A DNA stretch of 41,930 nucleotides from a virus. Shown in pieces: positions 1 through 41,930 of this stretch. The DNA lies in the IMG/VR virus record IMGVR_UViG_3300042691_018472, positions 1 through 41,930 of that record; one strand, written 5' to 3'. The notes under the pieces were generated by a model, which saw only the letters and a list, made by a program, of their open reading frames with translations, was not told the origin of the DNA and did no database searches. The first letter of the stretch is position 1; each line of letters begins with the position of its first letter. The position numbers and the translations under genes are program-made.

Positions 1-69
1 AAGTGCTCGGCCGGCGGTTCACGGATCAGGAACGTCAGGCGTTCGTGGAGTCGTACATCTCGCAGGAGC
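1..69. repeat. Terminal direct repeat, left copy (circular join)
   Basis: Bases 1-69 are identical to 41862-41930. An open reading frame starting at 40772 continues in the same frame through the repeat to the stop at 255-257, so the two ends join within a gene. This is what an assembler leaves when it closes a circular or circularly permuted genome. It is not evidence of a physical phage end, which would not normally lie inside a gene. Confidence 0.95.
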
Positions 70-4177: not shown

Positions 4178-5992
4178 ATGGCGCTGAACTGCTACCGGTA
4201 CGGACAGAACGAAGATGGTGTCGCCCGGAACCGTTCGGTCGAGCGTGCGTTCTTCTGGAACGACCCGTCGGACGGGACGACCGCAACGACGGTCAGTGAG
4301 AACTACAGCCTGATCGTCGCGATAAAGAACCGGCAGACGTGGCGCGAGTCGATCGTGGAGCATTCGACGCTCCCCCAGCCTGTCTGGCAATACATCCTGG
4401 CGACCGAACTGCGCGGCCGCGGGCATCCGACGGCGAACAGCAACTTCGGCGACCGTCTCAACAACAACGTCGCGTGGCGTGATGCAGTCTCGAACGTGTG
4501 GGTTGACGTCGATGAGACGGCTGCCGGCCTGTACGAGACGAACCGGGACTGGTTCCTCTACCACAACGAGGACGGCCCGATCATCGACTCGGCGACACAG
4601 ACCGGTATCGCCGTGTCGAGCGTTGACCTTGCGAACAACGAGCTGGTGACCGGTTCGGCGCACGGCCTCGCTGCCGGCCAGCCGATCTACGTCGGATGGG
4701 CGTCCGGGTCGATCACCGGCCTGACCGAGTGGAAGCTCTATTGGGTGCAGTCGGCGTCGACCACGACACGGGTCACGCTCGCCGCAACGCACAATGGCGC
4801 GGCAATCGACCTGACCGCATCGACTGCGACGACCGTCGAACTGTTCCGTGCCAGCACCTACTTCATGGACCCTGGCGCGACCGGCTACCGGGACTACTTC
4901 GTGTCGCAGGTCGAGGACTACTGGACCGATTACGACCAGTGGGACCATATTTTCCTCGACAACATTTTCCGTTCGGTCGGTTCGGCTGCCGGCGGGATCG
5001 CGTTGCGGGCGAACAGCATCGTCGGGGACACGGCCGTCAAGTACCGCCGCGACGGCGTCTACACCGCCTACACGAACGACGCGTACACCGATGCGGTCGC
5101 AGGGTTCCTCGCACACTTGCAAACGAACCTGACTGACGTGTACGGGACGGAGATTTGGGCGAACATTGTCGAGGCCCGCAACTACGACGGCGCCGAGAAA
5201 TACTTCCCGTACCTTCAGGGCGTGATGCTCGAGCGGTGGGCGACGGACTTCTCTGGCGACAACGACTACCCGTCCCTTGCCGACTGGAACGCCGACCTCG
5301 AGCTCGCCGAAGCGGCACTCGCCGCCGGGACGAAAGTCCTGTGTGTCGGCTTGGGCGCTGAGGCGAACACGGCGCTACAGGAGTTTGCGCTCGCGTCGTA
5401 CCTGTTGATCGCGGAGCCTGACGAGACATGGTTCCGGTACGCGCACAGTTCGAACTACGGCGAACATTGGGATTTCGCGAACTACGACACGACGCTCGGC
5501 AAGCCGCGCGGCGCCCGTGTTGAGGTCGACACGGACGTCTGGTTCCGCGAGTACGAGCTCGGCTACGTCCAGGTGAACGCCGACACGCACGACGTGACGA
5601 TCCACCATTCGGAGCCGCACGTCGTGTTCCCGACGGCGAGCTACTACGGCTGGTGCTTGACATGCCAGTCGCAAGGGTTCATCGAGAACGGCGAGTTCAA
5701 AGACCCGCGGGCGACAACGACGGTCGTGACGGTCGATGATGCGACGATCACGGCCGGGACGACGTTGACGATGACCGCCACGGTCGACGCTTCGATCCTG
5801 ACGCCGGCCGGCACTGTCGAGTTCTTCGCCGATGCGGTATCGCTCGGGACTGCGACGTTGAACGCGTCAGGTGTCGCGACCGCGACGGACGACACGCTGA
5901 CCGCAGCGACCTACCAGATCACCGCCGTCTACGCCGGCGACACGACTCACGATACGTCCACTTCGGCGCAAGTCCAAGTGGTCGTCAGCTAA
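4178..5992 (+). CDS. Tail/spike protein with glycosidase-like barrel, inserted module and Ig-like domain (604 aa)
   Basis: The main body resembles the hypothetical glycosyl hydrolase 15-like TIM barrels (GHL15) found in phage tail proteins. It has a strand ending in FLDN (D261) and a later strand ending in GVMLER (E352), typical places for acid residues in such barrels. A beta-rich insert at about residues 137-225 interrupts the barrel and resembles two segments of the 1212-aa spike. Residues about 512-604 form a bacterial Ig-like domain (Thr/Val-rich, ending in VQVVVS). It could bind or cleave cell-surface glycans. Start: ATG 4178 with GGAGG 6 bases upstream; the frame is open earlier but runs through the hairpin. 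Enzyme activity is inferred. Confidence 0.75.
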   Translation: MALNCYRYGQNEDGVARNRSVERAFFWNDPSDGTTATTVSENYSLIVAIKNRQTWRESIVEHSTLPQPVWQYILATELRGRGHPTANSNFGDRLNNNVAWRDAVSNVWVDVDETAAGLYETNRDWFLYHNEDGPIIDSATQTGIAVSSVDLANNELVTGSAHGLAAGQPIYVGWASGSITGLTEWKLYWVQSASTTTRVTLAATHNGAAIDLTASTATTVELFRASTYFMDPGATGYRDYFVSQVEDYWTDYDQWDHIFLDNIFRSVGSAAGGIALRANSIVGDTAVKYRRDGVYTAYTNDAYTDAVAGFLAHLQTNLTDVYGTEIWANIVEARNYDGAEKYFPYLQGVMLERWATDFSGDNDYPSLADWNADLELAEAALAAGTKVLCVGLGAEANTALQEFALASYLLIAEPDETWFRYAHSSNYGEHWDFANYDTTLGKPRGARVEVDTDVWFREYELGYVQVNADTHDVTIHHSEPHVVFPTASYYGWCLTCQSQGFIENGEFKDPRATTTVVTVDDATITAGTTLTMTATVDASILTPAGTVEFFADAVSLGTATLNASGVATATDDTLTAATYQITAVYAGDTTHDTSTSAQVQVVVS

Positions 5993-6003
5993 GGAGCAAA
6001 CGA

Positions 6004-6216
6004 ATGGCGCTGTCCTGTCCCTCATGCAAGTCGGGCGACATCGTGTCGATGTTCTCGACCGAGTGCGAATACTCCTGCCTGTCGTGCGCGACCACGTTCT
6101 CGAAGGCCGAGTTCGAGGCGGCGAAGGCTGCCCGTCGTGCGCCCGCCGCCGCGCTGGCCGCTGACTCGGTTGTCGCCGAGGCGAAGCCGTCGATCCGCCG
6201 CGGCAAGAAGGCGTAG
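6004..6216 (+). CDS. Small zinc-ribbon protein (70 aa)
   Basis: Two Cys pairs, CPSC (5-8) and CLSC (25-28), space like a zinc ribbon, followed by an Ala/Lys-rich basic tail ending in RRGKKA. AAGGAG lies just upstream of the ATG. Structural Cys proteins of this size occur among phage head and tail genes, and the fold could also bind nucleic acid. The gene sits between two structural genes in the same operon. Function unknown. Confidence 0.75.
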   Translation: MALSCPSCKSGDIVSMFSTECEYSCLSCATTFSKAEFEAAKAARRAPAAALAADSVVAEAKPSIRRGKKA

Positions 6217-6218
6217 AT

Positions 6219-6590
6219 GTGACCTACACGTTCCGGCCTCCCGCGCGTACGGACATCCCGCGGCTCACCGTGAAAGAGCTCGCACGTCCGAGCGATGCTG
6301 GCACGCGTCTCGGCCGGTTCATCAAGGCCGGGACACGCAGCGTGAACGTGTGGCGTCTGGTCGACGGGACGTTCGTGGAGACGATCCCCGAAGACATCAC
6401 GCTCATCGACCGGTGGTTCCAAGGCGGCGGCACCCATGAGGTCACCGCCGGTGAGGCGGCGCAGCTCGAGGCTGCCGGTTACGACGTCGACTACGACGGT
6501 GAAGAACCGCCGCCTGACGAGGACGAGACGGCCGGCGCCGGGTTCGGTGGCGAACCGTACGGCGAAGGCCCCTACGGAGGATCTGACTGA
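6219..6590 (+). CDS. Hypothetical neck/tail-region protein (123 aa)
   Basis: Starts at GTG 6219, three bases after the previous stop; the nearby ATG (6217) is followed at once by a stop. It has a compact N-terminal domain with VWRLVDG and PEDITLIDRWFQGG, then a linker of Glu, Asp, Pro and Gly (about 90-123) that looks disordered. Similar short proteins with HxVT..E...L..AGY endings lie in actinophage structural operons, so a connector or fibre-linked role is plausible. Its stop overlaps the ATG of the spike gene. No firm family. Confidence 0.6.
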   Translation: MTYTFRPPARTDIPRLTVKELARPSDAGTRLGRFIKAGTRSVNVWRLVDGTFVETIPEDITLIDRWFQGGGTHEVTAGEAAQLEAAGYDVDYDGEEPPPDEDETAGAGFGGEPYGEGPYGGSD

Positions 6591-19858: not shown

Positions 19859-20067
19859 TCGCACCGTACGACCAGTGGTGTGACCGGTGCGAAGTCGGAG
19901 AACGGGCCACCCGTATCCGCCCCTGCTGGAACTGCGGGAGACTGATGCGAGTGGCCCGATTCGAGATCGCGAGCCGAGCAGCAATGCACTACACGGCGAC
20001 GCACCCTCGGCCGGCTCAGAGCTCGCCAATACCGAGCGCCGCCCGTTCCGGCGACCACGCCGTATAG
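19855..20067 (+). CDS. Small zinc-finger-like protein, overlaps integrase end (70 aa)
   Basis: Contains CDRC (9-12) and CWNC (24-27), spaced like a treble-clef or ribbon zinc site. The last 17 codons overlap the 3' end of the leftward integrase gene, so the two transcripts converge and pair over about 52 bp. The C-terminal tail therefore may not be under its own selection. Function unknown. Confidence 0.6.
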   Translation: MIAPYDQWCDRCEVGERATRIRPCWNCGRLMRVARFEIASRAAMHYTATHPRPAQSSPIPSAARSGDHAV

Positions 20068-20897
20068 ACCGCAGTTGTCGCCGGCGACGAATGGCCCATC
20101 ATCTCCTGGACGAGACGCAGGTCACGGGTCTTCTCGTAGAGGCGTGTCCCGAACCGGTGCCGGAACGCGTGGAGTGTGGACCGGCAGCCGATGCCGCGCA
20201 GGTAGTCGGACGCTACCGTCTGCAAACAGCCGGGCGTGATCTGCGCCCCTGACTGTTGCCGGAACACCGGCCCACGGCCCGGAACGCCCGCCAACGCCTC
20301 TCGTACGCGCGGGTGCATGGGAACCACACGCTGCCGTCCTCCTTTGCCGTCGGCGACGATGATCACGCCACGTTCCAGGTCGACATCTTCGCCACGCAAC
20401 CCGGCGATCTCTGCGCCACGAAGCCCGGCGTATCCTGCGAGAATCAGCCACGGCCGCACCCTGTCCGGTGCCTGCCCGATCGCCCGTTCCATCTCGTCTT
20501 CCGATACCGGCCGGGGGACGCCTCGCTTGCGTCGCGGCATCGGCAAGTGTCGTGTCGGATCGTCCGTACGGAGCCCGTCATCGAGCGCCCAGGCGTAGAA
20601 CGACCGGAGGTGCGACAGGTCGACTGCCCGTGCCGGCGCCGACGCAGGGTGGGCGTCCCACCAGGCGTCGATCTGCGCCCGTGTGACCTCGCACGGGCAG
20701 ACCCCGGCCGACCGTTGCAGCCGGCTGAGGACGCCGCGGCGTGTCGCCATCGTCGTGGCCCGCAGCCCTCGCCGTTCACACCAGCGGAGATGGCGTTCGA
20801 CGTCATCACACGCATGTACCCGCCCACATACCCCCATAGCGGACGGAATGTACGGAACGAGGCCGTACTGGTCTACGGTTTGTGACGCCTGTCTCAT
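20016..20897 (-). CDS. Tyrosine integrase (293 aa)
   Basis: Tyrosine recombinase with the catalytic set R160 (GLRGAE), H243/R246 (LHAFRHRFG), H269 (MGHSS) and Y278 (TAVYTAW). Residues about 22-110 form the SAM-like core-binding domain. It joins phage and host att sites, which makes the phage temperate. The frame is open far upstream to 21833, but those residues are antisense to real genes. I use the ATG at 20897, whose ATGA overlap couples it to the repressor upstream. No arm-binding N-terminal domain is obvious, so it is a short form. No accessory recombination directionality factor was identified. Confidence 0.92.
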   Translation of the reverse strand: MRQASQTVDQYGLVPYIPSAMGVCGRVHACDDVERHLRWCERRGLRATTMATRRGVLSRLQRSAGVCPCEVTRAQIDAWWDAHPASAPARAVDLSHLRSFYAWALDDGLRTDDPTRHLPMPRRKRGVPRPVSEDEMERAIGQAPDRVRPWLILAGYAGLRGAEIAGLRGEDVDLERGVIIVADGKGGRQRVVPMHPRVREALAGVPGRGPVFRQQSGAQITPGCLQTVASDYLRGIGCRSTLHAFRHRFGTRLYEKTRDLRLVQEMMGHSSPATTAVYTAWSPERAALGIGEL

Positions 20898-21223
20898 GCG
20901 GCTACCTGAGGCTTCCCGCGTAGGCTGTGAAGGTTGTCTTTGAGTGCTTCGAGCTCGTCGGCATGTTCGGGTGACACGGCCCGCAGGTCGATGCCGAGCA
21001 CCTGACAGATCGCGGAGAGCGTGACCGGGGTCACCTTTTCGAGCGGTGTCTCGCCCGACTCGATCTTCCGCAGGATCTCGCGGCTCATGCCGCGGCGGCT
21101 GCCGAGGATTCGGTACACGTCGACGGCGACGACGTCGATCCGGTAGCCGCGCTGTTCGCGGGCGGCGGTGAGCATCCGTGCTCCCGGTGACGGGTTCGCT
21201 GGTGTCTGTCTCGGTCTTGCCAT
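20894..21223 (-). CDS. XRE-type repressor (109 aa)
   Basis: A helix-turn-helix of the XRE type is seen in GMSREILRKIESGETPLEKV through LSAICQVLGID (about residues 45-85). ATG 21223 has a near-perfect AAGGAGG upstream on the reverse strand; a longer form from 21301 would skip this site. It lies divergently from the early operon and is coupled to integrase by an ATGA overlap, as expected of an immunity repressor. The C-terminus ends in QVAA, a small hydrophobic tail that resembles an ssrA-type degradation tag. Regulation is probably by binding the repeats in the adjoining control region. Confidence 0.82.
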   Translation of the reverse strand: MARPRQTPANPSPGARMLTAAREQRGYRIDVVAVDVYRILGSRRGMSREILRKIESGETPLEKVTPVTLSAICQVLGIDLRAVSPEHADELEALKDNLHSLRGKPQVAA

Positions 21224-21272
21224 GTTGTTGCCTCCTTGGGCGTAGCGGAATCTCCCCACGATCCCGGCTCGG

Positions 21273-21301
21273 ACTGTAACGGCAACCGTTCGCACAATCA
21301 A
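21273..21301 (-). promoter_or_regulatory. Leftward repressor/integrase promoter
   Basis: On the reverse strand TTGATT (21301-21296) and TACAGT (21278-21273) are 17 bp apart. A 5-3-5 inverted repeat, AACGGcaaCCGTT (21278-21290), sits between and across the -10 element, where a bound repressor would block its own synthesis. Transcription would start near 21266, about 43 nt before the ATG. Confidence 0.45.
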
Positions 21302-21302
21302 G

Positions 21303-21378
21303 CGAAAGTTTGTCGCATTCAGGACTGACGGGCATGTTCTCCCAGGTCAGACGAAAGTTGCACGAAACAGGTTGCAAC
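21303..21378. promoter_or_regulatory. Candidate operators in the divergent control region
   Basis: CGAAAGTT occurs at 21303-21310 and again at 21352-21359, 49 bp apart. The first sits next to the leftward -35 box and lies in an imperfect palindrome GCGAAAGTTTGTCGC. The second runs into GTTGCACGAAAC and the perfect palindrome GTTGCAAC (21371-21378), which overlaps the rightward -35. These are plausible repressor and Cro sites in the 184-bp gap, and no gene is seen there. Confidence 0.4.
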
Positions 21379-21399
21379 ATCGCAGCATTCATGTATCTT
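21372..21399 (+). promoter_or_regulatory. Rightward early promoter (leaderless)
   Basis: TTGCAA (21372-21377), a 16-bp spacer and TATCTT (21394-21399). The expected start point, near 21406-21408, falls at the ATG (21408), and no Shine-Dalgarno sequence precedes it. The early operon would thus begin with a leaderless mRNA, common in actinobacteria. Confidence 0.5.
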
Positions 21400-21407
21400 C
21401 TGCTGCC

Positions 21408-21887
21408 ATGAGTACGAGCCCCCCGGCCAAGATCCTCGCCGCCTCCCTCAACACCGGCAGCGACCCAAGCCGCATCCACCACCAAGTCCGCACCTGGCGC
21501 GACGAAGGCCGCTCCTGGCCGCAGATCGTCGCCCTCATGGACAGCCGCTACGGCGTCACCGTCAGCCGGCGCAGCCTCGCCGCCTGGGCACCAGACCCCG
21601 AAGGGTTCGACGTCCGCATCCCTCGAGGCCGAGCACGGAACCACCCCCGGCTCCCCGCCCGCGACGTCGACCAGCTCACCCGGCTCCGCGACCGAGTCCT
21701 CGCCGCAGCCAGCAAAGGCCCGTGCGCCAACTACCCGCACGTCGCCGCGCTGCTCAACGTCGCAGCCCACGAACTCGACCAGATCATCACCGTCCCGGTC
21801 CCCTCGCTCCCACGGGACGGTGACCGGCCGCACCCGCCCGCCTCCTTGGCGGGTGCGGCCACCCTCGAACCGGAGCCGGCCGCATGA
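21408..21887 (+). CDS. First early gene, helix-turn-helix protein, Cro-like position (159 aa)
   Basis: Divergent from the repressor, in the Cro position. The N-terminal half has a HTH-like stretch (SWPQIVALMDSRYGVTVSRR, about residues 37-56) and a basic linker. A second helical part (LTRLRDRVLAAASKGPCANY) follows, and the Pro-rich tail ends in EPEPAA. Two stem-loops lie in the last 100 bases. I chose ATG 21408; an in-frame ATG at 21372 would lie within the promoter. It could be a Cro-like or excision regulator, but sequence alone does not show which. Confidence 0.65.
   Translation: MSTSPPAKILAASLNTGSDPSRIHHQVRTWRDEGRSWPQIVALMDSRYGVTVSRRSLAAWAPDPEGFDVRIPRGRARNHPRLPARDVDQLTRLRDRVLAAASKGPCANYPHVAALLNVAAHELDQIITVPVPSLPRDGDRPHPPASLAGAATLEPEPAA
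21790..21860 (+). promoter_or_regulatory. Tandem intragenic stem-loops, possible attenuator before whiB
   Basis: Two hairpins follow each other within the end of the HTH gene. One pairs CCGTCCC (21790-21796) with GGGACGG (21814-21820). The other is a perfect 13-bp stem, GGCCGCACCCGCC (21826-21838) with GGCGGGTGCGGCC (21848-21860), and a 9-nt loop. The stop codon follows 25 bases later. Coding constraint alone rarely gives such a perfect stem, so an attenuation or RNA-processing role is plausible. Confidence 0.55.
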
Positions 21888-31888: not shown

Positions 31889-33094
31889 GTGAAGGAAGGT
31901 GCGACGACGCGTCGGTGGCAGGAGGGGGCTGATCGTCGCGCGGAGATGTTGCGTCTGGTGCAGGGCGGGATGCCGATTTCGGAGGCGTGGCGGGCGGTCG
32001 GTTGGGCGGGGGAGGGTTCGTATCGGAAGGCGCGGGCGAATCATCCGCAGTGGGCTGCGCTGGTCACAGAGGCGGCTGCACGTCACCGGCAGGTGGAGCT
32101 TCGTCCGGGGCAGACGTACGAGAAGTTGTCGCATAGCGACTGGTCGAAGTTGTTTTGTCACCGGTCGCATCTGGCGCATCAGGTGGAGATCGCTGAGGCG
32201 CTCGATCGGACTGAGCCGGGCGAGATGACGTTGTTCAATCTGTGGCCGGGCGCCGGCAAGAGCTCGGTGGTGGTCGATTGGGTGACCCGGAAGTTGGCGG
32301 AAGACCCGGATCATCGGATCATGTACGTTTCGGAGTCGTCGAAGCTGGTGTCGGATTTCGTGTCGCAGATCCAGAAGCGGATGACGAACCAGTCGACGGT
32401 GCGGCTTCCTGGCGGCGAGGACGGGGATTTCTCTCTGTTGGTGTCGATGTATGGGCCGTTCTACGAGCCGGGGCAGGAGCGCCGGTCGAAGCGTCCGTGG
32501 GGGGCGTCGGAGTTCACGGTGGCCCGGTCGACGCGGGACGAGAAGGATCCGTCGATCGCGGCGTATGCGATCTCGTCGGTGGCGTACGGCTCGCGTGCGG
32601 ACACGTTGATTGTGGATGATGTCCAGTCGCAACGGTCGTTGTCGCAGACGGAGAAGGTGCTCAAGACGTTGCGGACGACGTACTTCAACCGTGGTACGCC
32701 GTCTCGGCCGCTGCGGATCTTTGTGATCGGGACGCGGATCGGCCGGGGGGATATTTACGAGGCGTTGCTCGATGAGGGCATCGTGGATCACAAGGTGGAG
32801 TTGTCGGCGACGGTGTTCGATCCGGGCCGGGGCCGGTTTGTGCCGCGGTCGCCGGCGGCGTGGCTGTTGGGGAACCCGAAGTTCGATCTGGATTCGATGT
32901 CGTCGGATGAGATGTTGGAGGCGGCGATCGTCGTGATGGACCGTCAGCGCCGGCGGGTCGGGGAAGAGGCGTGGTGGGCGAACTATGAGCAGGCGCCGAT
33001 GACGGTTGCGCTCTCGACGTTCGGTGAGGCGTTGGATGGCTGTTTGGATTCGACGCGCCGTATCGGGCGTCTGGTGCTCGGAGAGGCTGCGTGA
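31889..33094 (+). CDS. Terminase large subunit, ATPase part only (401 aa)
   Basis: Packaging motor ATPase with Walker A WPGAGKSS (K124), Walker B TLIVDDVQ (D243-D244) and a coupling motif FVIGTRIGRGD just after. The N-terminal ~90 residues (GGMPISEAWRAVGW) resemble a small-subunit-like HTH, so the two roles may be partly fused. The end, WWANYEQAPMTV...TFGEALDG, is where a normal large subunit would run on into its nuclease. Here it stops, and the nuclease is a separate gene starting 206 bp later. GTG 31889 is chosen because it fits the promoter; ATG 31946 is an alternative. Confidence 0.85.
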   Translation: MKEGATTRRWQEGADRRAEMLRLVQGGMPISEAWRAVGWAGEGSYRKARANHPQWAALVTEAAARHRQVELRPGQTYEKLSHSDWSKLFCHRSHLAHQVEIAEALDRTEPGEMTLFNLWPGAGKSSVVVDWVTRKLAEDPDHRIMYVSESSKLVSDFVSQIQKRMTNQSTVRLPGGEDGDFSLLVSMYGPFYEPGQERRSKRPWGASEFTVARSTRDEKDPSIAAYAISSVAYGSRADTLIVDDVQSQRSLSQTEKVLKTLRTTYFNRGTPSRPLRIFVIGTRIGRGDIYEALLDEGIVDHKVELSATVFDPGRGRFVPRSPAAWLLGNPKFDLDSMSSDEMLEAAIVVMDRQRRRVGEEAWWANYEQAPMTVALSTFGEALDGCLDSTRRIGRLVLGEAA

Positions 33095-33300
33095 TGGGTT
33101 CGTATGCGGAGTTCGCTGCGGAAGTGCAGGTGCGGAAGCATCTTGCGGAGACGGGTTGTGATTGTGAGCCGGATGTGGTGCTCGTTTCGGCTGGCGAGCG
33201 CGATCTGCTCTGCGAGGTGGAGCACGCGGCGTCGTGCAAGACGATCGCGTGCGCGACGTCGGGCGATGTGTCGCTGTCGGAGTTGGTGGTGGGCCGCTGA
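33094..33300 (+). CDS. Small Cys-rich protein inserted between terminase halves (68 aa)
   Basis: ATG 33094 shares one base with the ATPase stop, and its own stop shares a base with the nuclease ATG, so the three genes form one coupled unit. Five cysteines and two histidines (HLAETGCDCEPDV, CEVEHAASC, C53) look like a metal site. Small proteins starting with a similar CDC motif are common in actinophages. It may be a linker subunit or just a guest between the terminase genes. Confidence 0.7.
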   Translation: MGSYAEFAAEVQVRKHLAETGCDCEPDVVLVSAGERDLLCEVEHAASCKTIACATSGDVSLSELVVGR

Positions 33301-33914
33301 TGGACGACGCACAGGTGGTTTTGGGGATGGACCCGGCGCTTGGCGGCGGGACGGCGATCGTGGCGTGTGCTGCAACCTCGGACTGCCTGTACGTTCTGGA
33401 CGCAGAGGTCCGCTATGGCCTGAACCGGAACGAGGAACAGTTGGAGATGATCGAGTCGTTCGCGCGGCTCTATCAGCCTTCGTTGTTGATCCTCGAGTTC
33501 GACTCGCATCAGAAGGGGTTGGGGAACGACGACCGGTTGCGGTCTGCGGCGTCGGAGCATGGGTTTGTGATCCGGCCGCATCTGACCCGGATGCAGAAGC
33601 AGGATGTGACGTTCGGGACGGCGCAGATGAACCGGTCGTTCGTTGCGCGTGAGGTTTCGATCCCGTGGGCGGATGAGCCGTCCCGTGACCGGATGGCGCC
33701 GTTGGTGTCGCAGTTGCGGGCGTGGCGGCCTCCGGTGATCGACTCGGCGACCGGCCGGGTGAAGAAGCAGCCGAAACAGGATCTTGTGATGGCTCTCTGG
33801 TTCGTCTGGAAATGGTGGTTTCAGATGGTGCAGGAGTTGCGTGAGCATCGGCCTCCGGTGGTGGCGCAGTCTCGGCCGTCGTGGGTTGGGCGTGACCGGA
33901 GGTTGATTGCGTGA
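33300..33914 (+). CDS. Terminase large subunit, RNase H-like nuclease part (204 aa)
   Basis: The acidic triad of the terminase nuclease is visible: D11 in VLGMDPALGGG, E66/D68 in LLILEFDSHQKG and D161 in KQDLVMALWF. The domain cuts the phage concatemer at packaging start and end. It begins right at ATG 33300; an open frame from 33234 would lie inside the previous gene. The usual terminase carries this as its C-terminal domain. Here it is a free protein that must associate with the ATPase at 31889-33094. The stop overlaps the portal GTG. Confidence 0.85.
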   Translation: MDDAQVVLGMDPALGGGTAIVACAATSDCLYVLDAEVRYGLNRNEEQLEMIESFARLYQPSLLILEFDSHQKGLGNDDRLRSAASEHGFVIRPHLTRMQKQDVTFGTAQMNRSFVAREVSIPWADEPSRDRMAPLVSQLRAWRPPVIDSATGRVKKQPKQDLVMALWFVWKWWFQMVQELREHRPPVVAQSRPSWVGRDRRLIA

Positions 33915-35710
33915 AGTCTGCTGAGGCGATCTTTTCGCTGTATCAGGCGCGGCGGCAACGTCTCGCGCCGGTGCAGTCTGCGATGCTCGAGCTGCAAGGT
34001 GTCATCGGCGGCGAGATGATGATTCCGTTGCCTGAGATCAACGAGGCGGAACGGCCGGCGGTCGCGAACTTGATCGCGCAGACCGTCGACCAGAAGGCCA
34101 TGCGGATCGCGTCAACGATGCCGACGGTGAAGTACCCGGAACGCCGGCCGGGGATCAAGCGCAGTGAGGATCTGGCCCGGAGGCGCCGGCAGATCACGCT
34201 CGGCTGGTGGGGCGACGAACGGATGGGCTTGAAGCTCCGTGAGCGTGCCCGTCATGCGATCGCCTACGACGCGTCGGCGGTGATGCTCCGGCCCGACTTC
34301 GAGTACCAGCGGCCGTGCTGGAAGGTCCGCGATCCTGTCTCGGTCCTACCGGCGGAGATGGAGTCGGGGTGCCTGGTGCCTGACGATGTGATCTTCGCGT
34401 ACAAGTTGCCGTTGCATGAGATCGCCGAGTATTGGCCGGATGCTGCGGCCCGGATCAATAAGCGGGAAGTGAAGCCCGACTCGTCGTTCACTGTGTTGGA
34501 GTACGTCGACGCCGAAGAGATGGTGATGATCGTCTGCGGCGAAGGCGACGCGAACACCGGGATCGGGTATCACAATGCCGGCGAGTATGTCGAGGCGTCG
34601 CGTGTCCCGAACCGTGCGGGTCGGCCGCTCGCGGTGATCGCCGGCCGGGTGCATCTTGGCCGGTCGTTGCCTCGCCTCTACCAGTCGATCGGCATGTATC
34701 AGGCGCAGGCGCAGCTTTTCGCGATGGAGCTCATCGGGATGCAACGGTCGATCTGGCCGGAAACGTGGTTCCGTGACACGGAGAACGGGACCGGCAAGAT
34801 CGTGACGATGGCCGACCCGATCCGCGGGATTGTCGGTCATGTGCAGGGCGGGACGGTCGAGCAGTTCTCGCCGACGCCGTCGCCGTTCGGCTTGAACCTC
34901 GCCGACCGTCTCGAACGGAACATGCGGGTGCAGACGTCGACGCCGGCCGAGTTCGGTGGCGAGTCGCAGACGAACGTGCGGACGGGCCGTCGTGGCGACA
35001 GCATCATGTCGGCCGCGATCGACTTCGAGCTCCAAGAGATCCAGCAGCTGCTCGAGGCGTCGCTACAGGAAGAGAACAAGATCGCGATTGCGATCGACAA
35101 GGCGTACTTCGGCGGGACGAAGACTGTCTCGTTCTATTCGTCGGCGCTCGGGGAGATCACCTACGACACTGGCGAGGTGTGGGAGTCGGATGACAACTAC
35201 GTCATCTATTCGGCTGCCGGGTTGGATCAGCAGGAACTTGTGATCGGAGGGTTGCAGCGTGTCGGTGCGGGGACGTTGGCGAAGCGGACGTTCATGGACA
35301 TCGACCCGATGGTCGAGGATGCCGAACGTGAGAACGATTCGATCGTCTATGAACGTCTCAACGAGGCGTTGCTATCGGCGGTACAGACGCGTGCGGCGAA
35401 CGATCCGACGTTTGTGAAGCCGCTCGCCGAACTGATGCAGGCGGTACGGACCGACCGGAAGGATCTTGCGGACGCATACCTGGCTGCGGACCGGAAGATG
35501 CAGGAGGAACAGGCTGCGGCTGCGGGGCCGGCTGAGGGTGATCCGTTGGCGGCGTTGGCTGGTGGGCCGGCGCCGGAAGAGATGCCGGGCCTGGTGGAGC
35601 CGGGGCCGATGGTTCCTGAGCAGCAGCCGTCGCAGCAGAACTTGCAGTCGTTGCTGATGGGGCTGCGGAACGCGCAGTCTGCGGGCATGTCTGCGGTTGG
35701 GGGTGCGTGA
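33911..35710 (+). CDS. Portal protein (599 aa)
   Basis: Length, place directly after terminase and composition fit a portal. It has an N-terminal wing (KSAEAIFSLYQARRQRLAPV), a long central alpha/beta region with AQAQLFAMELIGMQRSIWPE, a stretch rich in helices (EIQQLLEASLQEENKI), and a Pro/Gln-rich disordered end. The dodecamer forms the DNA entry vertex and binds the terminase. GTG 33911 overlaps the nuclease stop by four bases. The family could not be named more precisely. Confidence 0.8.
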   Translation: MKSAEAIFSLYQARRQRLAPVQSAMLELQGVIGGEMMIPLPEINEAERPAVANLIAQTVDQKAMRIASTMPTVKYPERRPGIKRSEDLARRRRQITLGWWGDERMGLKLRERARHAIAYDASAVMLRPDFEYQRPCWKVRDPVSVLPAEMESGCLVPDDVIFAYKLPLHEIAEYWPDAAARINKREVKPDSSFTVLEYVDAEEMVMIVCGEGDANTGIGYHNAGEYVEASRVPNRAGRPLAVIAGRVHLGRSLPRLYQSIGMYQAQAQLFAMELIGMQRSIWPETWFRDTENGTGKIVTMADPIRGIVGHVQGGTVEQFSPTPSPFGLNLADRLERNMRVQTSTPAEFGGESQTNVRTGRRGDSIMSAAIDFELQEIQQLLEASLQEENKIAIAIDKAYFGGTKTVSFYSSALGEITYDTGEVWESDDNYVIYSAAGLDQQELVIGGLQRVGAGTLAKRTFMDIDPMVEDAERENDSIVYERLNEALLSAVQTRAANDPTFVKPLAELMQAVRTDRKDLADAYLAADRKMQEEQAAAAGPAEGDPLAALAGGPAPEEMPGLVEPGPMVPEQQPSQQNLQSLLMGLRNAQSAGMSAVGGA

Positions 35711-36377: not shown

Positions 36378-39300
36378 ATGGCGATGGTGCGCCCGCCGGT
36401 CAGTCGGGAACAGGCTGACTATCGCGCCTACCAGGCGCAGCAGAACGCCGTGTATTCGGCGTCGCAGACGTATGCGACGGCGAACCCGCTCGCTCAACGT
36501 CTCGTTGCGATCGACCGGAAGTTCCCGAACATGCGGCCGTCGCTGCTGCTCGCCGCCGCACAGTCGAACCTTTCTGACGACCAGATCGAGGTTCTGTGGA
36601 CGCGCCAGCAGGAGATGGAGGCGGAAACCGGAACCGATTCGCGTTGGTCGGGCGGGTTTTGGAGTGATGCGCTTGCCGGCGTGCAGTCGGTCGGTGAGAC
36701 GGCGATGCGGAACGTCGTGAAGCCGACGACCCGGCTGACGGTCGCAGCGATGGCCGCACCGTACGAGCTCGTCGTCGGGACGACCGCAAGCCTCGCTGCT
36801 GCCGTCGGGAACGCGACGGGTGACGATGATGTGTTCGGCCAGAACTATGAGGGTGGCTGGCGGAACCCGTTCGCGCAGACTCGCCTCGGGCAGTTCTTGG
36901 CGAACCCGACTGCCGACCAGGGCGACGGGTTCTTCATGGGCGGCGACATCGAAGACCAGACGTACGAGGCGCAACGTGAGGCGATGACGCTCACGAACGA
37001 CCGGAACGGGAACCTCGGCAGGACGTTCACGTTCGGACGGGCCGTGTTCGGCGGTGTCCCCGGTACGCCGGGGCGCATCCTCGAAGGCACGACCGACTTT
37101 GCGATGGCGTTGGCCGGCGACCCGGTGAACTACATCGCGCCGCAGGCGAAGAGCATCGGGGTCGCGCGGGGCGTGCTGCGCGCCGCAGATGACATTGACG
37201 AGGCTGCGGGGCTGGTGCGGAGTTGGCGTACGGTCGTGCATGGGCCGACGGCGCGTGCGTGGCTTGACGGCGAGACGGGCGCGCGGGTGATCGACTCGTT
37301 TGCCGGCACGGATGATGCGGCGACGATCTGGCGGGCGACGAACAAGAAGATCCCGGTGCAGGTCGCACGCGAGCTCGCAGAGACGGCCGACCCGGTCGAA
37401 GTCCGTAAGATTCTCGACCGGCATCTCGGCATCGACGTCGTAGAACGCCCATCGGAGATCCTTGACGGCGGGCGCCTTGCCCGTCGCAAGTATCGGCCTG
37501 AGACGCGTCGGTTGATCTCGAAGTTGCCGGCGACGGTGGTCGACCCGAACGATCTGGACGACATGGCGTTGCAGTTGGACCGGTCGATGGTGCAGGCGAA
37601 AGTGCCGCTCGCAGACCGGGACCGGGTGATCTCGGAACTGGCCGGGTCGCAAGGCCCGAACGACACCTACAACGCGCTCAAGTCGTACACGGACGCCGTG
37701 TTCGACGCGATCATCCGCAAAGACCCTCGCCGCCCGGACCTGACCGCGGCGCAGGAAGAGTTCATGTCGGAGACGTTGCGGCTGTGGACGCGCACGACGG
37801 ACAGCAGCCGGTCGTATGCGGTCGACGCGGTCGGCAAGCCGATGCACGATCAGGTTGTCGTGATCGGCGGCGCCGCCGGCCATCAAGCGGTTGTCGGTTC
37901 TGGCCCGATCGCCTGGACCGAGCTCCTGTCCCGTAACGTCGTGTTGCCTGACGCCCGGTCGTTGCGGCAGTTGACGTCGAACCATCGCCGGTTCTTTGCT
38001 CTGTCGAAGTATGTGGGCGATGAGGGCGCGGTGATGAACGTGTGGGATTCGTTCGTGATCGCGCCGCTCGACAAGTTCAACCAGTTCTGGCGTTCGATGA
38101 TGCTGCTCCGTGGCGGCGCGATGATCCGCAACGTCGGCGAAGCACAACTGTCGATGGCTGCGTCCGGGTATGCGTCGATGTTCAAGCATCCGCTCGAATA
38201 CATGGCATACGTCATGGGCGTGCCGGGACAGAAGGCGACCCGGATGCTGACCGAGTCGTTGACCGGTACGAACTGGATTGACGACGCTGCCGAAGAAGGC
38301 ACGATCATCTCGCGTACGACAGGCAAGTCGGCGCGGATGCGCCGCGATTACGGGAAGCAGTTCACGGGCGGGCACAAGCTCTACACGCGTGGCGAACGGT
38401 ACTTCGTGACGGCATGGGCCGAAGAGGTCGCGCGCATGTCGATCGACCCGATCGAGCGCAGCATCGCGCAGGCGTTGCGCGAGCCCGACCCGGCGGGGGC
38501 GCTCCGCGCGTTGAAGGACGACTTTTGGGATGGGTCACTGTCGAAGTTCCGTAAAGGGCTGGTCGACCCGGACGACGTCGCAGACGGTGCGACGCCTCGC
38601 CTGCGGCAGACGATTGGCTCCCGGCAAGGCTCCGACGCGTACATCGACACGGAGCTCGAGCGGCTACAGGGTGTTGTCGGCGGGAACGACACGATCCTCG
38701 AGGCGATCGCGACGCAACGTCTCGGCGGGCAGGCGCTCACGAACCAGAAGCGTGTCTCGAAGGAACTGATGCGCGAGTTGCGGCGCATGGCCGACAACGA
38801 GCAGGGGCTCCCGTCGGTGTTCGGCCGTGAAGCCATCGCGATCAAGGACGAGAAGACCGGCTGGTCGATGGCCGCAGACGGCCTATGGGATCTGCTCTAC
38901 TCGATCCCGTCGAATCGTCTGTCGCTCCACCCTGGCTTCAAGCAGTTCTACGCGGAAGAGCTCGGCCGGCTGTTCATGTACGGCGACGACGCTGCACGCG
39001 AGGCGATCGAACAGTACGTCCCTGGGAAGATGTTGCGCCGTACCGTCAACAAGAACGCGAAACTCCCCGACGACGTCGACTTCCTGACGATGGCCGAACT
39101 GGACCGGGTCGCGCAACGTCGGGCGCTCGACCGGGCGAAGCAAGTGTTCTACGACATCTCGTCAGACGAGAAGGTCGCCGCGTGGGAGACGTTGCGGTAC
39201 ATCATGCCGTTCGGTGCCGCGTGGGCTGACGCGACGAAACGGTGGGCGAAATACACGTTCCAGAACCCGAACCTGTTGCGCCGGCTGCACCAGGGGTTGA

Positions 39301-40772
39301 ACGGCGCCGAGTCGGCAGGGATCATCCAGGAAGACCCGGAGACGGGCGAACTGATGATGAACCTGCCGCTATCCGGGCTGGCCGCAGCCGGGACCGGTAT
39401 CCCGATCGGGATGCAAGGCCGTGTCGCCGGCCTGAACATGATCGCGCAGGCATACCCTGGCGTCGGGCCAGTCCTCGCGATCCCTGCGGTCACGTTCCTC
39501 CCCGACGACAATCCCGCATGGCTAACGTTGCGTGACACGATCGCGCCGTTCACGTCAGGGAAACAGGACATCATCTCGGCGACGCTCGACTCGTTGACAC
39601 CCGGATGGTTCGACCGCATCCAGTCGTCGGTGTCGCCAACCGAGAACCAGAAACGCGTCCATGCGAATCAGGTCGGCCGGAACATCATCTACCTTGCGTC
39701 GACCGGCGAGTACGACCTGACCGACCCGGCCGAGATCCGGGCACTGGTCGACAAGGCACGTCGTGCCGCGGACACACAGTCGTTCTTCCGTGGCGTCTAC
39801 CAGTGGTTCTCGCCGACGGCACCGTCGTTCAACCCGAAACTGATGCTCGAGGCCGGCACCGGCGCGGAACGTCTCGGCGACTTCTACCAGATATCGAAGG
39901 AACTGCGGGACCGGGAAGCCGAGCTCGAGCGGGAAGGGGCGGAAGACCCGCTCGGCGAGGCGGCGACCGAACTGCTCGCACGGTACGGCCCGAACCTCTA
40001 CATGCTGCTACAGCCGATGTCGTACTCGACCGCCTACGGGTCGGAGCCGACAGCCGAGTTCGATGAGTTCCGGTTGAAGAACCCGGACGTGTTCGGCGAG
40101 TACGCCGACATTGCTGGCCTGTTCGGGCCGGCGCATGGCGAGTTCTCGCTCGACTCGTACAACCGGCAGTTCCGGCGTGGGGAACGGGCGTCGTACTTCG
40201 AGGACGGGACAGCAAAGTCGTTCGAGGATTGGGTGGCGCTCAGCCAACACAAGTTCGGCCAGGTCGTCTACCGGAACCAGTTGAAGCGCCTCACACAGAT
40301 GGGCCTCGACCAGAACCCGTACGAGGTTGCCCGCCTGAAACAGTGGGTGCATGAGCAGTATCCGGGCTGGCAACGGCAGGACATCGTGTCGAACCGGAAC
40401 AAGTTGGCGTCGTCGGACGCGATCGAGATGTTGGAACAGTTGGTGGTCGACCCGAAGATGCAGTCGATGCCTGGTGTCGAGTCGGCCCGGACCTATCTAC
40501 AGTTGCGGCGTCAGGCGCTCGCAGAGGTACAGCGGGCAGGGTTGACGGCGTACGAGAATGGGCGTCTGGTGGTGTCGGAAGCGAAGGCGGTGTTGCCGAT
40601 CCGGCTGTGGCTCGCACAGATGGGAAACCAGTTGATGTTGCGTGACCCATATTTCGTGAAGCTGTGGGATGAGATGTTGTCATTCGAGGGCAACATTGGT
40701 GATGCGTTCACTGAGGCGGCCGGCTTGGATGCGGGTACGGGTACGGACACGGTGCAAGGGGTGATTGGCTGA
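36378..40772 (+). CDS. Giant virion protein, probable internal/ejection protein (1464 aa)
   Basis: The longest gene in the genome. Mostly alpha-helical, with hydrophobic stretches near residues 118-147 and 995-1040 (LSGLAAAGTGIPIGMQGRVA), which could cross or line a membrane. No enzymatic motif is obvious. Very large proteins of this type in short-tailed phages lie inside the capsid and are ejected to make a DNA channel; the neighbouring transglycosylase fits that model. It could instead be a tape-measure-like protein, but no tail-tube gene is seen. ATG 36378 follows the previous TAG directly. Confidence 0.7.
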   Translation: MAMVRPPVSREQADYRAYQAQQNAVYSASQTYATANPLAQRLVAIDRKFPNMRPSLLLAAAQSNLSDDQIEVLWTRQQEMEAETGTDSRWSGGFWSDALAGVQSVGETAMRNVVKPTTRLTVAAMAAPYELVVGTTASLAAAVGNATGDDDVFGQNYEGGWRNPFAQTRLGQFLANPTADQGDGFFMGGDIEDQTYEAQREAMTLTNDRNGNLGRTFTFGRAVFGGVPGTPGRILEGTTDFAMALAGDPVNYIAPQAKSIGVARGVLRAADDIDEAAGLVRSWRTVVHGPTARAWLDGETGARVIDSFAGTDDAATIWRATNKKIPVQVARELAETADPVEVRKILDRHLGIDVVERPSEILDGGRLARRKYRPETRRLISKLPATVVDPNDLDDMALQLDRSMVQAKVPLADRDRVISELAGSQGPNDTYNALKSYTDAVFDAIIRKDPRRPDLTAAQEEFMSETLRLWTRTTDSSRSYAVDAVGKPMHDQVVVIGGAAGHQAVVGSGPIAWTELLSRNVVLPDARSLRQLTSNHRRFFALSKYVGDEGAVMNVWDSFVIAPLDKFNQFWRSMMLLRGGAMIRNVGEAQLSMAASGYASMFKHPLEYMAYVMGVPGQKATRMLTESLTGTNWIDDAAEEGTIISRTTGKSARMRRDYGKQFTGGHKLYTRGERYFVTAWAEEVARMSIDPIERSIAQALREPDPAGALRALKDDFWDGSLSKFRKGLVDPDDVADGATPRLRQTIGSRQGSDAYIDTELERLQGVVGGNDTILEAIATQRLGGQALTNQKRVSKELMRELRRMADNEQGLPSVFGREAIAIKDEKTGWSMAADGLWDLLYSIPSNRLSLHPGFKQFYAEELGRLFMYGDDAAREAIEQYVPGKMLRRTVNKNAKLPDDVDFLTMAELDRVAQRRALDRAKQVFYDISSDEKVAAWETLRYIMPFGAAWADATKRWAKYTFQNPNLLRRLHQGLNGAESAGIIQEDPETGELMMNLPLSGLAAAGTGIPIGMQGRVAGLNMIAQAYPGVGPVLAIPAVTFLPDDNPAWLTLRDTIAPFTSGKQDIISATLDSLTPGWFDRIQSSVSPTENQKRVHANQVGRNIIYLASTGEYDLTDPAEIRALVDKARRAADTQSFFRGVYQWFSPTAPSFNPKLMLEAGTGAERLGDFYQISKELRDREAELEREGAEDPLGEAATELLARYGPNLYMLLQPMSYSTAYGSEPTAEFDEFRLKNPDVFGEYADIAGLFGPAHGEFSLDSYNRQFRRGERASYFEDGTAKSFEDWVALSQHKFGQVVYRNQLKRLTQMGLDQNPYEVARLKQWVHEQYPGWQRQDIVSNRNKLASSDAIEMLEQLVVDPKMQSMPGVESARTYLQLRRQALAEVQRAGLTAYENGRLVVSEAKAVLPIRLWLAQMGNQLMLRDPYFVKLWDEMLSFEGNIGDAFTEAAGLDAGTGTDTVQGVIG

Positions 40773-41930
40773 TGGCCGAGAAGACGGAGCAGCAGTCGAA
40801 GGCCGAGTTTTTCCGGGCGTTCGCGGAGAGTGCCGGCGCTGGTGATCTGGCGTCGGTGCTGGCGGTCGTTGCGGCGAACGATGATGCTGGTGCGGCGGTC
40901 GCGTCTGTTGGCGCGGGCGCCCGTACGGTGAAGAACCTCTCGGACGATGAGCGCGCGTCGTTGCTCGATGCTGGCTTTTCGGTGGAGAAGACCGCTGAGG
41001 GCTGGCAGATCAGTGGTGATACGGCGACGCGGAATGCGGTGCGTCGTCTGGTGGGGGAGGCGGAGCGGGCGTGGACGCAGGAGTTGATCGACCGGGAGAA
41101 CGCGCCGGCCGATGAGGTCGAGAAGCAGGCTGGCGAGACGTCGGACGAGCAGGCTGCGGAGGACATCGGCCAGATCGTGTCGGGTGCGCCGGTGGAGCCG
41201 GGGATGGGCGGGACTGCGCTCGACCCGAACGACCCGCTCGGCGCGGGGGCGGGGACCGGCATGCCTGCCATCGGCGGGGCGCAGTCGGGGGACGTCCCGC
41301 GAGAGCAGAACCTGATAGGGGTCCAACCCGGTTACGTCGCGCGCATCCCGGGCACGGACCTGTACGAACGCGAAGGAACCCTGTACGACAAGCAGGGAAG
41401 GTTGCCGGCCGATCTCCCGCCTGGGCATGACCCTGGCGGCGACATGCTCGGCGCTGCCGGCTTTAGCACGCGTGAGCGGATGACGAACGAGGGGGGCGTG
41501 TGGACGCGCCGCAGCGCGAACGCCCGCCTCCCCATGTACGAAGAGTTCGATGAGCTCCAAGGCGCCGGCTGGGAGCACGACAAGATCGGGCGGGTGCAGG
41601 CCCGCCTCGTCGCCGCCGGGCTCTTGAAGGACGGTGAGTACCGGGCGCGCGTGTGGGACCCAGCCACGGCGGGCGCGTTCAAGGAAGTGCTCGCACAGGC
41701 GAACGTGTACGGGTCCGACTGGAACTCGACGCTACGACGCCTCGAGCAGTCCCCGCTCGAGGATGACGGCACCGGTGGTAGCGGTTCGGATCGGGCGCCG
41801 CTGGTCTACTCGTTGCCTGACCCGGACGAGCTCGGTCTGGTCGCGGAGCGGGTGTCGGCGGAAGTGCTCGGCCGGCGGTTCACGGATCAGGAACGTCAGG
41901 CGTTCGTGGAGTCGTACATCTCGCAGGAGC
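40772..41930 (+). CDS. N-terminal part of 448-aa virion-associated protein (continues at 1-257)
   Basis: ATG 40772 overlaps the giant gene's stop (TGATG). The reading frame has no stop before the end of the window and continues in frame at base 3 across the 69-bp repeat to stop at 257. The N-terminal ~120 residues are helical and charged; an Asp/Gly/Pro-rich linker follows. Around residues 280-309 is LVAAGLLKDGEYRARVWDPA, a peptidoglycan-binding-like repeat pattern often seen near phage lytic proteins. The likely role is in the same virion complex as the transglycosylase. Confidence 0.8.
   Translation, partial: MAEKTEQQSKAEFFRAFAESAGAGDLASVLAVVAANDDAGAAVASVGAGARTVKNLSDDERASLLDAGFSVEKTAEGWQISGDTATRNAVRRLVGEAERAWTQELIDRENAPADEVEKQAGETSDEQAAEDIGQIVSGAPVEPGMGGTALDPNDPLGAGAGTGMPAIGGAQSGDVPREQNLIGVQPGYVARIPGTDLYEREGTLYDKQGRLPADLPPGHDPGGDMLGAAGFSTRERMTNEGGVWTRRSANARLPMYEEFDELQGAGWEHDKIGRVQARLVAAGLLKDGEYRARVWDPATAGAFKEVLAQANVYGSDWNSTLRRLEQSPLEDDGTGGSGSDRAPLVYSLPDPDELGLVAERVSAEVLGRRFTDQERQAFVESYISQE
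41862..41930. repeat. Terminal direct repeat, right copy
   Basis: Identical to bases 1-69. It marks the closure of the circular assembly; see the left copy. Confidence 0.95.

What the first reader, a model, noticed from the sequence alone, without database searches (positions are those of the whole stretch)
31889..33914. Split terminase large subunit: ATPase and nuclease on separate genes with a Cys-rich gene between
Seen: Walker A and B motifs and a coupling motif lie in a 401-aa gene (31889-33094), while the RNase H-like acid triad (D11, E66/D68, D161) lies in a separate 204-aa gene (33300-33914). A 68-aa gene with five Cys fills the gap, and all three genes share one-base overlaps. Known: terminase large subunits normally carry ATPase and nuclease as one polypeptide. 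Inference: the motor must assemble from two chains, and the small protein may act as a bridge, a regulator or a chance guest. The split falls at the hinge between domains, so it does not look like random decay.
Basis: partly seen in the sequence, partly recalled or inferred. Interest (0 to 1): 0.72.

Follow-up and report, generated by a model that had tools for sequence, protein, structure and literature searches.

The report
Phage packaging motor split in two
In this phage and three relatives, the enzyme that pumps DNA into the virus head and cuts it is made as two separate proteins instead of one; the split is real and inherited, but another phage group with the same kind of split has already been reported.

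Summary
The terminase large subunit (TerL) is encoded as an ATPase gene (31889-33094) and an RNase H-fold nuclease gene (33300-33914), with a 68-aa Cys-rich gene between. Both match one TerL family, phrog_38, over consecutive profile stretches (272-521 and 546-714). Catalytic residues are invariant in 23 relatives: K124, D243/D244; D11/E66/D161. The record's ends overlap by 69 bases, so the 41,861-bp genome is effectively complete; no second terminase was found. Among IMG/VR relatives only the four closest contigs (three distinct lineages) are also split; every other relative read across the seam is fused, apart from one GenBank record with a likely sequencing frameshift. Split genes form one clade (support 99/97), implying one fission in the interdomain linker with neither domain lost. 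At the seam: no gene (L001, L003/L004), one gene (window) or about 1.36 kb of small genes (L002). The small protein is therefore not a required bridge, and ribosomal rejoining is implausible. Most likely the two chains assemble non-covalently on the portal (inferred). Precedent: Arthrobacter cluster AY phages have a similarly split TerL, in an unrelated TerL lineage. This is an independent case with genes inserted at the seam.

The parts
31889..33094 (+). TerL chain 1: N-terminal helical region aligned with a family helix-turn-helix, then packaging ATPase (Walker A WPGAGKS with K124; Walker B LIVDD with D243/D244; GTR motif 281-283); flexible tail after about residue 370
   Evidence: phrog_38 5.8e-26; invariant residues; AlphaFold2 pLDDT 86; nearest folds PhiV-1 TerL 9.5e-10 and T4 gp17 ATPase domain 7.2e-5; HTH_23 in 10 of 21 family members, none in the window member itself
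33094..33300 (+). 68-aa Cys-rich gene lying in the seam; no known homologue; TGATG overlaps on both sides
   Evidence: codon usage; GGAGAG about 8 nt before ATG; no homologue; absent from the other split records
33300..33914 (+). TerL chain 2: RNase H-fold nuclease, catalytic triad D11/E66/D161
   Evidence: phrog_38 2.3e-4; invariant residues in 23 relatives; AlphaFold2 pLDDT 86; Foldseek to RuvC, PhiV-1 TerL, HCMV, P22, G20c and T4 terminase nucleases at 3e-6 to 9e-5
33911..35710 (+). Likely portal protein (599 aa), GTGA overlap with the nuclease gene
   Evidence: homologue follows TerL in L001-L005, L016 and L046; position matches the Beephvirinae portal near TerL; no convincing HMM hit of its own

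Best explanation
An ancestral one-chain TerL of the phrog_38 lineage underwent a single gene fission inside the linker between ATPase and nuclease. The window phage and three related lineages inherited the two-gene form. Each chain keeps a complete fold and all catalytic residues. The chains are translated separately, coupled by overlapping stop and start codons where the genes abut, and are inferred to reassemble non-covalently on the portal: chain 1 pumps DNA and chain 2 cuts it at the start and end of packaging. Once the linker was broken, the seam became an ordinary intergenic site where small accessory genes can settle; the 68-aa gene is one of these. Shown here: fission, monophyly, conservation, genes present at the seam in two lineages. 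Inferred: two-chain assembly, translational coupling and the roles of each chain.
For: Both halves match one TerL family over consecutive stretches. IMG/VR relatives: 36 of 40 fused in the first scan, the four closest contigs split; after the wider scan every relative read across the seam outside that clade is fused, except record JXY1. Split rows form one clade at 99/97, nested beside fused L046, one change on the tree. The break falls in the linker: chain 1 ends shortly after the conserved CLDxxR motif and chain 2 starts 5-10 residues before the catalytic Asp, with total linker length like that of fused relatives. Seam contents: none in L001 (ATGA) and L003/L004 (GTGA), one gene in the window, about 1.36 kb with 7 stops in the nuclease frame in L002. 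dN/dS about 0.28-0.42 for window vs L001, and about 0.3 for the more saturated L002 vs L003 pair, in both genes. L003 and L004, from two metagenomes, have identical ATPase and near-identical nuclease genes. No second phrog_38 match in an apparently complete genome. Domain folds.
Against: No experiment shows that the chains bind each other or the portal; no complex was modelled. The window's nuclease alone scores only 2.3e-4 against phrog_38, though L001 and L002 reach about 1e-9. Only four independent split lineages are known, all from metagenomes. TM-scores to solved terminases are modest (0.3-0.6).
Confidence: 0.8

Rival explanations
1. The two genes are rejoined into one protein during translation by programmed frameshifting or stop readthrough.
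For: Successive genes lie in successive -1 frames; the middle and nuclease frames are open for some distance upstream of their starts, so two -1 shifts could in principle give one chain.
Against: L002 has about 1.36 kb with 7 stops in the nuclease frame at the seam. I saw no shared slippery heptamer at the junctions by eye. L001 and L003 have exact ATGA/GTGA start-stop overlaps with the start at the equivalent position.
Confidence: 0.05
2. The split is a sequencing or assembly frameshift in a normal fused gene.
For: Such an error probably occurs in Streptomyces phage JXY1, where the break falls inside the ATPase domain.
Against: Here the break is in the linker in four divergent lineages, with separate starts and a whole extra gene or several at the seam; two near-identical contigs come from different metagenomes.
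Confidence: 0.02
3. A self-splicing intron at the seam joins ATPase and nuclease mRNA.
For: Introns in phage terminase genes are known (background knowledge); mirusvirus terminases trans-splice ATPase and nuclease parts (PMC12768974).
Against: No intron family at the window or L002 seam with Rfam; L001 and L003 have no spare DNA at the seam.
Confidence: 0.02
4. The ATPase chain works alone as a translocase and the nuclease acts as a free enzyme, not held on the motor.
For: The phi29 packaging ATPase works without nuclease activity (PMC11476376); nothing here proves that the chains bind.
Against: Neighbouring genes, start-stop overlaps in three of four lineages, same hinge position, and family-wide conservation of both domains suggest a retained joint function.
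Confidence: 0.12
5. The 68-aa Cys-rich protein is a needed bridge or regulator of the split motor.
For: It is in the same apparent operon, overlaps both genes by one base, and looks coding.
Against: Absent from the sister lineage L001 and from L002-L004; no homologue found anywhere searched.
Confidence: 0.07

Closest known systems
Arthrobacter cluster AY phages (BillyTP PP978841, BlueShadow): TerL ATPase and nuclease domains on two consecutive genes (PMC11920828, PMC12820723)
   Same: TerL split between the ATPase and nuclease domains, with the genes side by side and before the portal
   Different: Unrelated TerL lineage (phrog_9/19179/21277 instead of phrog_38; no BLAST similarity); genes overlap by 17 bases with nothing between; siphoviral-type neighbours
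One-chain TerL of Beephvirinae Streptomyces phages (FlowerPower, Immanuel3) and IMG/VR fused relatives (L046 nearest)
   Same: Homologous ATPase and nuclease, same catalytic residues; Beephvirinae portal also near TerL
   Different: Single polypeptide
Mirusvirus terminase with ATPase and nuclease parts encoded about 30 kb apart and trans-spliced (PMC12768974)
   Same: ATPase and nuclease parts separated in the genome
   Different: RNA is rejoined, and the break lies near Walker B; here no rejoining mechanism is seen

Membership tests
Terminase large subunit, phrog_38 lineage | ATPase domain with Walker A/B and coupling motif | tested here: met
   (5.8e-26); K124, D243, D244, G281, R283 invariant; T4, PhiV-1 and P74-26 terminase folds
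Terminase large subunit, phrog_38 lineage | RNase H-fold nuclease with acidic triad | tested here: met
   (2.3e-4)
Terminase large subunit, phrog_38 lineage | Both domains on one polypeptide | tested here: not met
   separate ORFs in window and L001-L004
Terminase large subunit, phrog_38 lineage | Packages and cuts DNA at the portal | not testable with these tools
   needs experiment
Split TerL as in Arthrobacter cluster AY | ATPase and nuclease on separate neighbouring genes | tested here: met
   met in layout, though in the window one small gene intervenes
Split TerL as in Arthrobacter cluster AY | Common descent of the split genes | tested here: not met
   different best PHROG families and no BLAST similarity
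Intron-interrupted terminase gene | Catalytic intron RNA at the seam | tested here: not met
   no Rfam intron match in window or L002

The most novel reading that the evidence does not exclude
The packaging ATPase and the nuclease are functionally uncoupled in this clade: the ATPase ring translocates DNA alone and the nuclease is a separately recruited enzyme, so cutting and pumping can be regulated or exchanged independently.
Probability: 0.12. Interest if true: 0.65.

Novelty: new variant of a known kind. Interest (0 to 1): 0.42.

Why it matters
It shows that the covalent link between motor and nuclease has been lost in a second, independent terminase lineage, and that unrelated genes can settle between the two. 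These phages offer a natural test of whether the link is needed to coordinate pumping with cutting. It is also a practical warning: automatic annotation can miss the nuclease half of a split TerL, as its own family score is weak.

Tried and rejected
A single-protein scan of viral contigs with the ATPase gave no hit; an alignment query gave only the four split contigs and one weak one. A genome-contig scan gave one distant fused relative. The middle protein gave no homologue. Streptomyces phage JXY1 looked split but its break is inside the ATPase domain, probably a sequencing error. Rfam found no intron; two sub-threshold hits in the window are chance level. A sequence profile of the nuclease found no PDB relative; only the fold search did. 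A search for 'split terminase' found no paper.

Full report
Observation. The ATPase runs 31889-33094, the middle gene 33094-33300 and the nuclease 33300-33914. Both junctions read TGATG, a one-base overlap. The nuclease gene then overlaps the next gene, the likely portal, by GTGA. The middle ORF uses codons like the neighbouring genes: 0.235 bits per codon in frame, -0.70 or lower in the other five frames.

Identity. Both halves match the same PHROG terminase family, phrog_38, over consecutive stretches: ATPase 272-521 (5.8e-26) and nuclease 546-714 (2.3e-4). The nearest fused relative, L046, matches 212-724 of the same profile in one chain. In 23 aligned relatives the ATPase keeps K124, D243, D244, G281 and R283, and the nuclease keeps D11, E66 and D161. 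AlphaFold2 models have pLDDT 86. Foldseek puts the nuclease with RuvC and with terminase nucleases of PhiV-1, HCMV, P22, G20c and T4, and the ATPase with PhiV-1 and T4 terminase. Many family members carry an N-terminal helix-turn-helix that Pfam detects (10 of 21, best 4.6e-8). The window protein aligns there but has no Pfam hit of its own.

No second terminase. The first and last 69 bases of the record are identical, and a 467-aa open frame spans the join. The record is therefore most simply a circular assembly of a complete 41,861-bp genome, although IMG/VR calls it linear. phrog_38 has no other match in it, and the ATPase query found only itself.

Distribution. Of 40 IMG/VR relatives found by the nuclease, the four closest contigs are split and 36 are fused. 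A wider alignment scan added only fused or truncated relatives. The one other break, in Streptomyces phage JXY1, falls inside the ATPase domain and looks like a sequencing error. A tree of 30 non-redundant sequences puts the split ones in one clade (support 99/97), nested beside fused L046, with one change of state. L003 and L004 come from two metagenomes with identical ATPase genes and one codon change in the nuclease. Both genes are under purifying selection: dN/dS is about 0.28-0.42 between window and L001, and about 0.3 in the more saturated L002-L003 pair.

Anatomy of the break. In fused relatives of this branch roughly 30-36 residues separate the conserved Phe (F378) from the catalytic Asp. 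In the split forms the ATPase keeps the part up to the CLDxxR motif plus a short tail, and the nuclease starts 5-10 residues before the Asp; added together they give about the same length. So the linker was cut and neither domain lost anything.

The seam. L001 has no gene there (ATGA overlap), nor do L003/L004 (GTGA). The window has the 68-aa gene. L002 has about 1.36 kb with several small ORFs, one collagen-like, and 7 stops in the nuclease frame. This argues strongly against ribosomal rejoining and against the 68-aa protein being a needed bridge. No homologue of that protein was found. No intron RNA family is present at the seam of the window or L002. Small genes also sit between nuclease and portal: an endonuclease VII-like gene in L002 and two ORFs in L001. 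The neighbourhood thus readily takes up small genes.

Mechanism. The best reading is a motor assembled from two chains on the portal, with expression coupled by overlapping stop and start codons. Assembly and coupling are inferred, not shown. A nuclease working free of the motor is not excluded.

Prior art. [quoted passage not shown] PMC12820723). In BillyTP the genes overlap by 17 bases. They belong to a different TerL lineage with no detectable BLAST similarity to the window, so the fission most likely arose independently. Mirusviruses separate the two parts too, but trans-splice them (PMC12768974). The window is therefore a new, independent variant of a known arrangement, distinguished by genes inserted at the seam.

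Noticed in passing
window 1-69 and 41862-41930: Exact 69-base end overlap and a 467-aa open frame across the join: the record is probably a complete circular assembly although IMG/VR calls it linear.
   Followed up: yes
L042 1186-2199 and 2264-3160 (NC_048854.1): TerL of Streptomyces phage JXY1 is annotated as two genes, but the break is a frameshift inside the ATPase domain, probably a sequencing error.
   Followed up: partly
window 31889-32090 and family alignment: Family members carry an N-terminal helix-turn-helix (HTH_23 and similar) on the packaging ATPase, which could do a small-terminase job; the window has no Pfam hit there itself.
   Followed up: partly
L002 3663-5009: Collagen-like (GPTGPT) ORF and other small ORFs between ATPase and nuclease genes; endonuclease VII-like gene right after the nuclease at 5598-6317.
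   Followed up: partly
window 36378-40772: 1464-aa protein after the likely portal with almost no database match; position recalls the very large gp9 of Streptomyces phage FlowerPower.
   Followed up: no
window 20016-21833 (-): Integrase-like gene (phrog_1, 2.4e-40) on the minus strand, suggesting a temperate phage.
   Followed up: no
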